A DNA stretch of 64,000 bases from Aquila chrysaetos chrysaetos (lineage: Eukaryota; Chordata; Aves; Accipitriformes; Accipitridae). The translations under genes were made by a program, and so were the position numbers. The notes under the pieces are model-generated. The model had not been told where the DNA came from and did no database searches. It saw only the letters and a program-made list of their open reading frames with translations. Location of the stretch: the NCBI RefSeq assembly GCF_900496995.4, contig NW_024470387.1:62001-126000 (forward strand), given 5' to 3'. Positions 9,001 through 56,600 of this stretch are shown here, piece after piece. Positions within the stretch are counted from its first letter, which is position 1; the number at the start of each line of letters is the position of its first letter.

Positions 9001-9210
9001 TCAGACCCAGCACAGGAGCCGGCAGGCTGGGGCATCTCCAGCCCTGGAGACACGTGCTGGTCCTGCACAGGCGCACCCACGGGACACCCCCCCCCCCCCC
9101 TCCCATCAGACGCGGACGCCCAGCCACGGGACACGACGGCGGGGGACACGCAGCCGGCGCACAGGGAGACACACAGCCAGAACACACACAGCTCATGCCA
9201 GCATTCCAGC

Positions 9211-9216
9211 TTTATT
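9211..9216 (-). terminator. Poly(A) signal of the protamine-like gene
   Basis: AATAAA on the minus strand lies 217 bases beyond the TGA at 9,433-9,435. The flanking phrase AATAAAGCTGGAA recurs on the plus strand at 13,134, together with neighbouring 3' UTR sequence. Confidence 0.65.
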
Positions 9217-9432
9217 GGTGGAGCCAGGGCCTCCGTAGTCCGGCAGCATGGAGTCAGGGGTGGCCGGGCTCAGCGGAGCTGCCCCCCATCCCGCCCCACA
9301 CGTTGGGGGCAAGGAGGGTACGGGGGGGGGCCCGGCTGTGCGAGGGGACAGCCCTGCAGCCGACCCAGCATCAAGCCGGGCTCAGCATGGGACCCTCCAC
9401 CCCGCAGCCCCCCGCCCAGTGCTGGGGTCTGC

Positions 9433-9612
9433 TCAGCAGCACCCGCTGCGTTTCGCATCCCACCACCGCACCCTGTGCCGGCGGCGGCGTGCCGCGGGCT
9501 TGCGTCGCCTCATCCCGTACCGGCGGCGAGGGCGGCGCAGGATGCCACGCATGGGGCGGCGGTGGCGGCGCCGGCTCCTGCCGTGACCCCCGCTGTATCT
9601 GGGCCGGGCCAT
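9433..9612 (-). CDS. Protamine-like sperm nuclear basic protein, 59 aa
   Basis: The ORF starts MARPRYSGGHGRSRRRH, continues RRPMRGILRRPRRRYGMRRR and ends WWDAKRSGCC. Of 59 residues 24 are arginine (41%), in clusters of two to four, with no acidic residue except one Asp. Bird protamines (galline) are about 60 aa, start MARYRRS and replace histones in condensing sperm chromatin, so length, start and arginine clusters fit. A TATA-like box (9,681-9,689) lies 70 bp upstream and AATAAA 217 bp downstream, so it looks like a compact single-exon gene. A decayed tandem copy lies at 11,940-12,079. Unlike chicken galline it ends in Gly-Cys-Cys, which could allow disulfide crosslinks as in mammalian protamines. 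The main alternative is a chance open frame in CGC-rich DNA; the paired promoter, poly(A) signal and paralogue argue against it. Confidence 0.7.
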   Translation of the reverse strand: MARPRYSGGHGRSRRRHRRPMRGILRRPRRRYGMRRRKPAARRRRHRVRWWDAKRSGCC

Positions 9613-9680
9613 GCTGGCTGACTGGGTTCGATGGCCGCCTGGCCCCGCCGGAGTGACATGGGTGCACGCCCACCGCCCCG

Positions 9681-9780
9681 CTTTAGATAGGGGTGCCGGG
9701 TCACCGCCCCGGCGCAGGAGACGCAGGAGGAGTCCCCGGGCCGGCCGGCGGCGCAGCACAGCGCGGCGCGGCGCAGCGGG
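9681..9780 (-). promoter_or_regulatory. Promoter of the protamine-like gene
   Basis: A TATA-like TATCTAAAG lies on the minus strand at 9,681-9,689. Upstream, 9,695-9,765 is nearly identical to 12,420-12,485 (shared phrase GGAGACGCAGGAGGAGTCCC), which lies upstream of the decayed copy. The shared block shows that the promoters were duplicated with the genes. Confidence 0.55.
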
Positions 9781-9878: not shown

Positions 9879-10500
9879 TGTCCTAGTTTCAGCTGGGATA
9901 GAGTTAACTGTCTTCCTAGTAGCTGGTACGGTGCTGTGTTTTGAGTTCCGTACGTGAAGAACGTTGATAACACTGATGTTTTCAGTTGTTCCTAAGTAGC
10001 GTTTAGACTAAGTCAAGGATTTTTCAGCTCCTCATGCCCAGCCAGCGAGAAAGCTGGAGGGGCACAAGAAGTGGGCACAGGACACAGCCAGGGCAGCTGA
10101 CCCAAACTGGCCAACGGGGTATTCCATACCATGGGACGTCGCATTTAGCATAGGAACTGGGGAGTGGGGGCGGGGAATCGCCACTCGGGGACTAGCTGGG
10201 TGCCGGTCGGCGGGTAGTGATAAATTGCACTGCGCATCATTTGTACATTCCAATCCTTTTATTGTTGCTGTTGTCATTTTATCAGTGTTATCATTTATTG
10301 TTGCTGTTGTCATTTTATCAGTGTTATCATTATCATTATCAGTTTCTTCCTTTCTGTTCTATTAAACCGTTTAAACCGTTCTTATCTCAACCCGTGGGTT
10401 TTGCTTCTTTTCCCGATTTTCTCCCCCATCCCACTGGGTGGGGGGGAGTGAGTGAGCAGCCGTGTGCTGCTTAGTTGCTGGCTGGGGTTAAACAACGACC
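9879..10500 (+). mobile_element. Solo LTR with 5-bp target duplication, inside the minisatellite
   Basis: The start TGTCCTAGTTTCAGCTGGGA and the end GGCTGGGGTTAAACAACGAC are those of a widespread avian ERV LTR. CCCAT flanks it on both sides (9,874-9,878 and 10,501-10,505). A 36-bp unit with TTATTGTTGCTGTTGTC is duplicated in tandem at about 10,257-10,330, just before the polyadenylation region. No internal region remains, so it formed by LTR-LTR recombination. It looks complete. Confidence 0.88.
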
Positions 10501-11945
10501 CCCATGCTGCCGCCGGCTCCCTGCATACCGGCGGCTTCTTATCCACACTGCCGCTGGCTCCATCAGTACCGCTGACAGTGTGTCCCATGCCATCGCCACC
10601 TCCTTTGCTACAGGCGCCTGCCTGTCCCACGCCAGCACTGGCTCCTTCAGTACTGTCGGCTTCGTGTCCACGGCGCCGCCGGCTCCTTCGTTACCGGCGG
10701 GTGCAGGTCCCACGCCGCCGCTGGCTCCTTCGGTCCCACTGGGTGCAGGTCCCACGCCGCCGCTGGCTCCTTCGGTCCCACTGGGTGCAGATCCCACGCC
10801 GCCGCTGGCTCCTTCGGTCCCACTGGGTGCAGATCCCACGCCGCCGCTGGCTCCTTCGGTACCGGTAGCAGAAGGTCCCACGCCGCTGCCGGTCCTTCGG
10901 TACCGGTGGGTGCAGGTCCCACGCCGCCGCCGGCTCCTTCAATACTGGCAGCAGCAGGTCCCACGCCACCACCGGCTCCTTCGGTACCGGTGGGTGCAGG
11001 TCCCACATCGCCACCGGCTCCTTCGATACCGGCGGCAGCAGGTCCCACGCCGCCACCGGCTCCTTCGGTTAGCAGCGGCAGCAGGTCCCACGCCGCCACC
11101 GGCTCCTTCGATACCGGCGGCAGCAGGTCCCACGCCGCCACCGGCTCCTTCGGTAGCGGCGGCAGCAGGTCCCACGCCGCCACCGGCTCCTTCGGTAGCG
11201 GCGGCAGCAGGTCCCACGCCGCCACCGGCTCCTTCGGTAGCGGCGGCAGCAGGTCCCACGCCGCCACCGGCTCCTTCGGTAGCGGCGGCAGCAGGTCCCA
11301 CGCCACCACCGGCTCCTTCGGTAGCGGCGGCAGCAGGTCCCACGCCACCACCGGCTCCTTCAATACTGGCCCAGGCAGCAGGTCCCACGCCACCACCGGG
11401 CTTCCTTCGGTAGCGGCGCAGCATGGTACCCCACGCCACCCACCGGGCTCCTTCAATACTGGCAGCAGGCATGTCCACGCCACCCACCCGCTTCCTTCCA
11501 TACTGGCGGCAGCAGGTCCACGCCAACCACCGGCTCCTTCGATACCGGCGGCAGCAGGTCCCACGCCGCCACCGGGCTTCCTTCGGTAGGCGGCGGCAGC
11601 ATGTCCACGCCACCAGCCGGCTCCTTCAGGCGGTAGCCGGGCGGCAGCATGTCCCACGCCACCACCGGCTCCTTCAATACTGGCGGCAGCAGGTCCCACG
11701 CCACCTAACCGGCTCCTTCGGTAGCGGCGTCAAGCAGGTCCCACGCCACCACCGGCTCCTTCGGTTAGCGGCGGGCAAGCAGGTCCCAACCACCACGCCA
11801 ACCAACCGGCTCCTTCGGTAGCCGGCGCAGCAGGTCCCACTCCACGCACCGGCTCCTTCAATACTGGCGGCAGGCAGGTCCCACGCCAGCCAACCGCTCC
11901 TTCGATACTGGCAGCAGCGGGTCCCACGACCGCCACCCCAGGCTC
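10501..11945. repeat. 42-bp minisatellite, about 30 units
   Basis: Units follow the pattern CCGGCTCCTTCGGTAGCGG-CGGCAGCAGGTCCCACGCCGCCA, 42 bp long, with the middle most uniform (11,090-11,340) and the ends diverged by small indels. Because 42 is a multiple of three, all frames stay open for hundreds of codons. In one minus-strand frame the unit reads RRGTCCRRYRRSRW, rich in Arg and Cys. The right end merges into the C-terminal codons of the decayed protamine copy, so the array probably grew out of that gene. Confidence 0.85.
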
Positions 11946-12079
11946 CTCAGGTGCCAGCGGCTGCGTGCCGCGGGTCTGCATCACCTCTTCCCGTACCAGC
12001 GGTGAGGGCGGCTGTGGATGCGACGCGTGGTGCAGCGTCAGCTCCTGCTTCGGCTCCTGCTATGCCTGGACCGGGCCAT
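11940..12079 (-). pseudogene. Decayed tandem copy of the protamine-like gene
   Basis: ATG at 12,077-12,079 opens MARSRHSRSRSRS, the classic protamine start, then meets TGA at 12,038. Reading on in the same frame gives RPHRWYGKR-stop-CRPAARSRWH, which aligns with RPRRRYGMRRRKPAARRRRH of the intact copy at 9,433-9,612. Both stops are TGA where the relative has or would fit CGA, the usual CpG decay of an arginine codon. The promoter is well preserved (TATATAAAG at 12,148-12,156). Beyond about 11,940 the sequence passes into the 42-bp minisatellite. A 13-residue basic peptide could still be made, but a dead gene is more likely. Confidence 0.65.
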
Positions 12080-12147
12080 GCTGGCTCCCTGGCTTCGGTG
12101 GCCGCCCTGCCCTGCCGGAGGGCAATGGCTCTGCGCCCACCACCCCG

Positions 12148-12156
12148 CTTTATATA
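12148..12156 (-). promoter_or_regulatory. TATA box of the decayed protamine copy
   Basis: A perfect TATATAAAG on the minus strand lies 69 bp upstream of the ATG at 12,079, at the same relative place as the TATA-like box of the intact copy, within the shared phrase CCCTATNTAAAGCGGGG. Confidence 0.6.
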
Positions 12157-12190
12157 GGGGTGCCGGGGTGAGGCCCTTTGTGACACGGGC

Positions 12191-12338
12191 GCATTGCGAG
12201 GCCAACCTCACCGGTGGCATCACAATGTCCCCACGGCGACGCCTGACCGTGTGTGGCCGCGTTGCGAGGCCGCGTTGCGAGGCCAACCTCACCGGTGGCA
12301 TCACAATGTCCCCACGGCGACGCCCGACCGTGCGTGGC
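12191..12338. repeat. 81-bp-period duplication in the protamine-copy promoter
   Basis: A block of about 68 bp containing GAGGCCAACCTCACCGGTGG and CACAATGTCCCCACGGCGAC occurs twice, starting at 12,191 and 12,272. It lies 35-190 bp upstream of the TATA box and is absent from the intact copy, so it is an insertion or local expansion in this promoter. Confidence 0.8.
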
Positions 12339-12499
12339 CTCCGTGGCTGCCGGCCAGCCCCAGCCCGCAGGAGGAGGGCGGCCGCCCCGCGTCAGCACCG
12401 CCTTGTGCCGGCAGGTCCGCCGGTCACCGCCCCGGCACAGGAGACGCAGGAGGAGTCCCCGGGCCGGCCGGCGGCACAGGGGCAGGAGTGCCAGCTGTG

Positions 12500-53625: not shown

Positions 53626-56600
53626 CTAGTGCTCTGCATCCCTGGCCTTCTCCTTCTTCTTCTTCTTTTTCTTCTTCTTCTCCTCCTCATCCGCCTCTAC
53701 CATTAGCTTCCTCTTCTTCTTGGGCAAGACTTCTTCTTCCAGCCCATTCTCCTCCGGTTCAGAGTCCGTCTCCGGCTCCTGCTGCTGCTTCTTCTTCTTT
53801 TTCTTCTTTTTGGGCTCGATGTCGTTCTCCTGAGGGGAACGCCCGGGTCAGCAGGAGCCGTGCCCAACCCAGGGAGCCCCATGTCCCAACTGCCTCACCC
53901 CCATGGGGCTGGGGCCCATCCCAGCCCCCTCCCACCCCACAGCCCCCTACCTCCACCTCCTCTGCGGCAGCAGCCAGAGCCTCTAGGCGTTGCTTCTCCC
54001 TCTTCTTCTTCTTCTTCTCCTTCTTCTCCTGCTTCCTCTTGACCTCGGCCACCACCTCGCTCGCCTGACGGAGGAGAGGGGGAGCTCAGCACCGTGGGAG
54101 AGGTTCCCAGCCCAGGACCCATCCCCACCCAGCGCCGCTGGTCGGATCAGCCTCATTAAATCAGTCTTTTGCCTCCATGGCGGGTCAGGACGGTGGTTTG
54201 ACATCACATCCGACAGCAAGGCCCTGCCCGTCCCCACGCAGCCTCACCTCCACCACGGCCTCCTTCATCACCTCCAGGTTCTTGCGGGGCGGCTCCCCCG
54301 TCTCATAGAAGGCCAAGCGCTCCTCCACCTGCTCCCGCAGCTTGTCCCCGAAGACACTGGTGGGGACTTCTGTGGGGAGAGGAGAGGGGCTCAGCACCCC
54401 CTGCCCCACCCCACCCCACCCCACCCCGCTCCACGCTCTGCTCAGACCACAGGAGTCACCATTCACACAGTGAGATGCTGTTGACGAAAAATATTCCCAT
54501 CATCGCAGAGGCAGCCCGGGACCCCGTCCCCCCCTCCCCTGGCACCTGAGAAGCAGTCGATGCGGGAGGCGATGGTGCACTTGTTGGCCAGGTAGCGGGA
54601 GATGCGCCCCTTGTTCTTAGCAGCCGCTCGCCCGATGAAGGTGGAGTGGAAGATGAGCCCGTACTTGGGAGTGTTCCCTCGCGTCTTCAGCGCCCTGGAA
54701 CCGGCCAGCAGAGCGGTCAGGGAGGGGACGCGGGAGCGCCCGTGGCCGAGGGCACCCCCACATGGAAGCCGCCACTGGCTGTCGCTCCTCCCCCAGCAGC
54801 CCCAGCTCTCACCCGCAAGCAGCCCAGCGCGACCCACTGGGACAGACGCCTTCCCCCACGGCCCCGCTAACCTCCGGGGGTGCCGGGGGGCACGGCCCCA
54901 CCGGGAGAGACACAAAGCCACGGTGGTCGCTCAGACACTGGCCTGGCTGATCACATGCGGCCAAGGCCATGGGGGCCCAGTGCATCGCAGCCGGCGGCCC
55001 AGAGGCCTGCCATCACCGCAACCACCCTGCAGCGGTACCTGAAAAGGGCTTTCTCGGCCCCCAGGATCTGCACCGTCGAGGCCGGGTACTTAGCCAAGTT
55101 TGTCAGGCTGCCAGCGTGGGAGATGAGACGGGCGCCCACCTGGGAAGGAGGAGGATGGGGGTTATGGCTGCCCACCACCACCGTGAGCCCGGCTCTGGGC
55201 CGCACACAGTCCCCCAGGCCAGGGATCAGCAATAAGAGATGTCAGCAGAACAGCTCAGTGGATTGACAGATTTGCTCAGACATCATCTCCGCAGCCTGGG
55301 GCGACCCGGGGCGCACACACGCTCACACTCACCACCTCCCCGATGAGGGCTGAGAGGCTAGGAGCCACCTGGCTCATCTTGGAGCGGAGATATTCCTGCA
55401 GGCCCTTGCGGTACTCGGAGAGCGAGATGACACGGCTAGAGAAGCTCTCGATGTTGATGAGATCAAGGGGAGAGATGTCCATCCCTGGCAAAACGGGTGT
55501 CGGGGGCTGAGCGGCACCTCCCCGGGCAGGCGTGACCCTTCCCGCCGCAGCCCACCCACCCTGGGAAGTGCAGCACTCCGGCAGAGCCACCGCCGACGCC
55601 TGTCCCCACTCACCCATGGAGGAGCGGGAGGCTTCCAGGATGGCCTGCGCCTTGGCACTGTCCATGACGATCTCCTCCAGCCCCTCCAGGCTCTCCTCGC
55701 TCAGCTCCTTGCGGTTCCCGATGAACTTGGCCAGCCGGCAGTAGGTGTAGTTCTCGGACACGATCTTGATCAGCTCGGGAAAGTGGTATCCGTACCACTC
55801 CCTGGGGAAGGACAGGGGACAACAGCGTCAGTGCTGCAGCCCGACCCCTCGCCCCGTGTGTCCCTCCAGGCATGCTCCGGCCGGGACGCCGTCACCCCAG
55901 CCGGGTCGCGCCTTTGAGGTGCTGCTCTCCCTCCCCGTTCTGTACAGGCAGCCAGAGGGGCGGCTGCCTGCGGTAAGCGTGGGGAGACGGGCCCGTGCCG
56001 CCCTCCCGCCCCGGGGACCCCTGCTCACCGCACGCGCATGGAGAAGGTGTTGATGTCCTTGTCCAGCTGGTCCAGGAGACTGATGGACTGGATGATCATG
56101 TTGTCCACGCGGTTCACGTTGAACTTCACTTTGGCCCGGGAGTAGCTGTGGCCGAGGCCCAGCTGGGCCTTGGAGGCCGACTGGGCGGTGAGGCCCTTCA
56201 CCAGCGCGTGGAAGTGCAGGCGGATCCCTGGCCAGGGAGCCAGCCGTCACCACGTCGTCAAGGGCGGCGGGTGTCCCCTCTGCACGGCCGGGGCGTCCCC
56301 CTCCACATCCCCTCCACGGCCAGACTCACCCCGCAGGATCTCGGCCACGACCCCCCCGGTCTGGCATTGGTAACCCAGCTCCTCCAGGATGGCGGCCCCG
56401 ATCTTGGCGTCGGCGACTCCCAGCAGTGCCTTCTTCTTCTTGGCCGGCATGGAGGTCTCCAGCAGGAGCCGCAGGTCCTCGTGGAGGATCCCTGCGAGAC
56501 GGGGGAGGGTGGAGGGGTCAGCGGGACCACGCAATTTCCCGTGGGGGGGGGTTACCCCGGTGCCCCCAGCCCCACCGCAGCCCGCTCACCCTCGGAGACG

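What the first reader, a model, noticed from the sequence alone, without database searches (positions are those of the whole stretch)
9200..9690. Compact arginine-rich gene that looks like an avian protamine
A 59-codon ORF with 41% Arg, a protamine-like start (MARPRYS), a TATA-like box 70 bp upstream and AATAAA 217 bp downstream. Protamines evolve so fast that gene finders usually miss them, so this may be unannotated. The C-terminal Gly-Cys-Cys is unlike the cysteine-free chicken protamine and suggests disulfide crosslinking in sperm chromatin.
Basis: partly seen in the sequence, partly recalled or inferred. Interest (0 to 1): 0.85.

Follow-up and report, generated by a model that had tools for sequence, protein, structure and literature searches.

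The report
Worn protamine copy in bird array
The short arginine-rich gene is a real relative of this bird's sperm DNA-packing protein (protamine), but it looks like a drifting, promoter-damaged copy in a repeated block, while intact copies elsewhere in the same genome look like the working genes.

Summary
In detail: window 9433-9612 (minus) is an open 59-codon frame with 24 Arg (41%), a TATA-like box and AATAAA where described. The protamine reading holds at the level of descent. The same genome carries 7 relatives (6 on contig C5, 1 on C2), 7 of 7 open, encoding MKRSRRSR...RSRRC with 46-49% Arg. They are probably the bird's working protamines. The window gene is one of 10 'W-type' copies found in repeat arrays (C1 start, C95, C93, C131). 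10 of 10 share a promoter deletion and lack the proximal block kept by 7 of 7 canonical copies. 4 of 10 are frameshifted, perhaps partly by assembly error. dN/dS against canonical copies is about 1. A neighbouring 'P-type' copy (window 12167, minus) is dead by a shared early stop, and a 42-bp minisatellite that seems to come from the protamine's own last codons has expanded inside it. Most likely the window gene is protamine-derived but relaxed or silent. Expression is untested, so a working variant is not excluded. The cysteine end is not special to this copy: 7 of 7 canonical proteins end in Cys. One result does not fit simple decay: the coding part diverged faster than its flanks.

The parts
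9433..9612 (-). 59-codon Arg-rich ORF (W-type protamine-like coding sequence)
9682..9689 (-). TATA-like box TATCTAAA (TATATAAA in canonical copies)
9690..9710 (-). junction of the promoter deletion, identical in 10 of 10 W-type copies
   Evidence: absence of the proximal block
9510..9659 (-). out-of-frame upstream ATG and 49-codon frame overlapping the main start; no ATG at this place in the canonical copies
9271..9412 (-). 142-bp insert in the 3' UTR, absent from canonical copies and from 2 of 10 W-type copies
9200..9271 (-). 3' block with AATAAA (9216..9211), 93-94% identical to canonical copies over 70 bases
11951..12167 (-). P-type protamine copy: TATA to coding part, ATG at 12079, stop at codon 14 (MARSRHSRSRSRS)
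12172..12339 (-). proximal promoter block of the P-type copy, tandemly repeated (81-bp period)
10624..11937 (-). 42-bp minisatellite, about 30 units, similar to the canonical C-terminal codons, running on from the P-type coding part

Best explanation
The window ORF is a copy of this bird's intronless-looking protamine gene, amplified in a repeat array together with a dead sister copy and a minisatellite. It lost the proximal promoter block before amplification (10 of 10 copies share the junction) and is drifting. Shown: homology, array membership, shared deletion, near-neutral substitution pattern, open canonical copies elsewhere. Inferred: the C5/C2 genes make the sperm protamine, which would bind and compact sperm DNA through its arginine clusters; the window copy makes little or no protein, and its frame is still open mainly because duplication is recent and few substitutions in it create stops.
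For: 0 of 10 W-type copies have the proximal block within 1 kb upstream, 7 of 7 canonical copies have it, and 7 of 7 P-type copies have at least part of it; shared junction 10 of 10. Window against three canonical genes: dN/dS 1.03-1.12; all W-type/canonical pairs computed 0.93-1.40; W-type pairs 0.59-1.77. Differences by codon position 24/17/16, no third-position excess. Frames: 6 of 10 W-type open, 7 of 7 canonical open with lengths differing by whole codons. Arg 20-24 and one Asp in open W-type proteins against Arg 27-30 and no Asp or Glu in the canonical translations. TATA changed in 6 of 10.
Against: The window frame itself is open and Arg-rich. Three of the four broken W-type copies are on C131/C93, which look error-prone, so breakage may be overcounted. 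Coding divergence from canonical copies (57/177 to 58/174) exceeds that of the 3' UTR end plus flank (15/145 to 17/145; Fisher p 1e-6 to 2e-5, also at non-CpG sites), which simple neutral decay does not predict. dN/dS near 1 is also seen between the canonical C5 and C2 genes (0.77-1.10), so the ratio alone does not mark decay. Protamines are known to evolve fast (recalled).
Confidence: 0.7

Rival explanations
1. W-type copies are working, testis-expressed protamine variants: a second, MAR-starting, Cys-bearing protamine that evolves fast and packages sperm DNA beside the canonical one, from a shortened promoter.
For: 6 of 10 frames open, including an in-frame one-codon deletion in two copies; TATA intact in 4 of 10; coding part diverged faster than flanks, as under diversifying selection; conserved 3' end with AATAAA.
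Against: Shared loss of the proximal promoter block; synonymous sites diverged as much as nonsynonymous ones (dS about 0.39, dN about 0.43); an out-of-frame upstream ATG; an open frame after 57 substitutions has probability about 0.26 without selection under the mutation weights I assumed, so openness is weak evidence.
Confidence: 0.2
2. Array-borne protamine copies act selfishly or as dominant-negative or dosage-modifying chromatin proteins, as reported for multicopy protamine-like genes of Drosophila.
For: Multicopy, partly degenerate protamine relatives next to intact genes; the Drosophila parallel (abstracts and outlines of PMC10120018 and PMC9917458).
Against: No sign of expression was available; the C1 copies are not on the contig with the clustered DM domains that I take as Z (C37); C93, C95 and C131 are unplaced.
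Confidence: 0.06
3. A chance Arg-rich frame in GC-rich repeat DNA, with no relation to protamine.
For: GC 69% around it; no Pfam match.
Against: Alignment from TATA box to 3' end with open canonical genes, and protein similarity beyond 2000 of 2000 shuffles. The canonical proteins have no Pfam match either.
Confidence: 0.02

Closest known systems
Chicken galline, the bird protamine (sequence recalled from memory)
   Same: Small, Arg-rich, MAR start as in W- and P-type; the C2 canonical protein scores above all but 1 of 2000 shuffles against it, C5 above all but 8; chicken protamine genes are intronless and in two copies (recalled).
   Different: The window protein is much weaker (85 of 2000 shuffles reach its score), 41% Arg against 58%, has Asp, Trp and Cys; galline as recalled has none of these three.
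Multicopy protamine-like genes of Drosophila, such as Mst77Y (PMC10120018, PMC9917458; abstracts and outlines seen)
   Same: Amplified relatives beside working genes for sperm nuclear basic proteins.
   Different: I compared no sequences; those amplifications lie preferentially on sex chromosomes (abstract of PMC9917458), whereas C1 here does not carry the DM-domain cluster taken as Z; no expression shown here.
Mammalian protamines P1/P2 (recalled)
   Same: Arg-rich with cysteines.
   Different: No Pfam match of any of the three proteins tested; mammalian genes have one intron (recalled).

Membership tests
Protamine gene family of this genome (by descent) | Alignable TATA region, coding frame and 3' end with the canonical copies | tested here: met
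Protamine gene family of this genome (by descent) | Short protein with a large share of Arg | tested here: met
   59 aa, 24 Arg
Working bird (galline-type) protamine | Very Arg-rich and free of acidic residues (typical, recalled) | tested here: not met
   41% Arg and one Asp in the window protein; 46-49% and no Asp/Glu in the canonical ones
Working bird (galline-type) protamine | Promoter like that of the canonical copies | tested here: not met
   proximal block absent in 10 of 10 W-type, present in 7 of 7 canonical
Working bird (galline-type) protamine | Coding sequence kept by selection | tested here: inconclusive
   dN/dS about 1, no third-position excess, but coding part faster than flanks, and C5 against C2 gives 0.77-1.10 too
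Working bird (galline-type) protamine | Similarity to chicken galline | tested here: inconclusive
Working bird (galline-type) protamine | Expression in spermatids and presence in sperm chromatin | not testable with these tools
   no RNA or proteome data on hand

The most novel reading that the evidence does not exclude
This bird has two protamine lineages: the promoter-complete MKR type and an array-borne MAR type whose coding sequence was driven apart while its flanks stayed alike. Some array copies are still translated and alter sperm chromatin, and the dead P-type copies record an in-frame 14-codon expansion of a formerly longer Cys/Arg-rich protamine.
Probability: 0.12. Interest if true: 0.8.

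Novelty: new member of a known kind. Interest (0 to 1): 0.42.

Why it matters
My searches of the held paper library found little on bird protamines beyond galline. This genome shows a multi-locus bird protamine family in which 7 of 7 canonical proteins end in cysteine, so disulfide linking in bird sperm chromatin becomes testable there. It also shows protamine genes seeding degenerate arrays and, very probably, a minisatellite made from their own exon. Annotators should not take the array copies for the working gene.

Full report
What is there. The ORF at 9612..9433 (minus) is as described: 59 codons, 24 Arg, TATCTAAA at 9689..9682 and AATAAA at 9216..9211. The window is bases 62001-126000 of contig C95 (246 kb) of an unnamed assembly of 1.23 Gb in 144 contigs. 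It is of bird type: 146 beta-keratin matches.

A family, not a lone gene. The DNA search of the same genome gave 47 matches, a lower bound by the tool's own statement. I sort them into three types. W-type: 10 copies (C1:4421, 41457, 43234, 54287; C131:20941, 42715; C93:4804; C95:28536, 47869 and the window copy at 71700), plus two fragments on C1 near 121-123 kb. P-type: 7 copies (C1:1703, 14429; C131:9059, 30885; C95:50677; the window copy at 12167; C8 at its very end), plus a TATA block fused to the minisatellite on C95. Canonical: 7 copies (six on C5 near 2.63 and 3.69-3.71 Mb, in divergent pairs, and one on C2 at 53.03 Mb). C131 and C93 overlap at 91-97% over long stretches, so some copies there could be alternative assemblies of one locus. 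W- and P-type copies lie at contig ends or on small contigs; no run of three or more TTAGGG was found in C1:1-130000, C131, C93:1-20000 or the window, so 'subtelomeric' is not shown.

The canonical genes. 7 of 7 are open, with 59, 59, 61, 63, 61, 59 and 61 residues, start MKRSRRSR, end RSRRC, 27-30 Arg, and no Asp or Glu in the translations. They have TATATAAA, a proximal promoter block that includes GTGTCACAAAGGGCC, and AATAAA. Against galline as I recall it, 1 of 2000 shuffles reaches the score of the C2 protein, 8 for C5 and 85 for the window protein. They are the best candidates for this bird's protamine; that is inference, since no expression was seen.

The window copy and its sisters. 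10 of 10 W-type copies share one junction that joins distal upstream sequence to the TATA block; the proximal block is absent within 1 kb upstream in 10 of 10, present in 7 of 7 canonical copies and at least partly present in 7 of 7 P-type copies. The TATA box is TATATAAA in 4 of 10 W-type copies, TATCTAAA in 5 and shortened in 1. W-type copies have an out-of-frame ATG near the place where transcription would be expected to start (the 25-30 bp rule is recalled), so it may or may not lie in the mRNA. Frames: 59 codons in four, 58 in two, shifted in four; three of the four are on C131/C93. Window against three canonical genes: dN/dS 1.03-1.12, dS 0.39-0.41; differences by codon position 24/17/16 against the C5 gene. 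The open frame carries little weight: under the mutation weights I assumed, a substitution makes a stop with probability about 0.023.

What does not fit simple decay. Coding divergence from canonical copies is 57/177 to 58/174 in the four pairs tested, against 15/145 to 17/145 in the 3' UTR end plus flank (Fisher p 1e-6 to 2e-5, also at non-CpG sites). P-type (C1:1703) against C2: 3/67 upstream, 15/81 from TATA to ATG, 37/131 in the coding part. Synonymous sites are fast too. Either the coding parts are an older split whose flanks were later made alike by gene conversion, or the proteins changed fast before decay. Without other species I cannot separate the two. C5 against C2 also shows dN/dS 0.77-1.10, so the ratio alone does not tell decay from a fast-evolving protamine; the promoter loss weighs more.

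The P-type and the minisatellite. 6 of 7 P-type copies read MARSRHSRSRSRS and then TGA; the seventh is frameshifted. Where canonical genes encode their last codons, P-type copies run on into 42-bp repeats (about 30 units at window 10624-11937). The unit aligns with the canonical C-terminal codons with scores of 26 (C5) and 28 (C2), reached by 0 of 1000 dinucleotide-preserving shuffles each (maxima 24 and 25). In 3 of 7 P-type copies (two on C131, one on C1) the array is followed by the protamine C-terminal codons and 3' end again; in the window copy it is not. So the minisatellite very probably arose inside a protamine exon. The unit is a whole number of codons, which chance gives one time in three. 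Matches to it were found on C95, C1, C131 and the end of C8 only, with 13 candidates scored.

Verdict. Protamine family by descent: yes. The working protamine of this bird: probably not; that role fits the C5/C2 copies. The Gly-Cys-Cys end is a small change of a Cys end common to the family: C1:54287, 41457 and 43234 still end in Arg-Cys.

Noticed in passing
G000 C5:2630270-2631299, C5:3695071-3709571, C2:53029776-53030182 (L046-L049): Seven open protamine genes, the six on C5 in divergent pairs, with an N-terminal stretch that varies in length by whole codons between copies.
   Followed up: partly
window 12172-12339 and C1:1318-1698: The proximal promoter block of the P-type copies is tandemly repeated (81-bp period; two units in the window, about five on C1).
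   Followed up: no
C8:46934300-46934974 (L050) and C1:1-5000 (L026): C8 ends and C1 begins inside the same kind of P-type/minisatellite array in the same orientation, so they may be neighbours broken at the repeat.
   Followed up: no
window 53762-54499, minus: ORF pieces that resemble NOP56 exons (recalled resemblance); Pfam gave nothing at E <= 0.01.
   Followed up: partly
window about 9880-10400: AT-richer stretch between the minisatellite and the W-type gene that looks like a bird LTR-type repeat (recalled, not tested).
   Followed up: no
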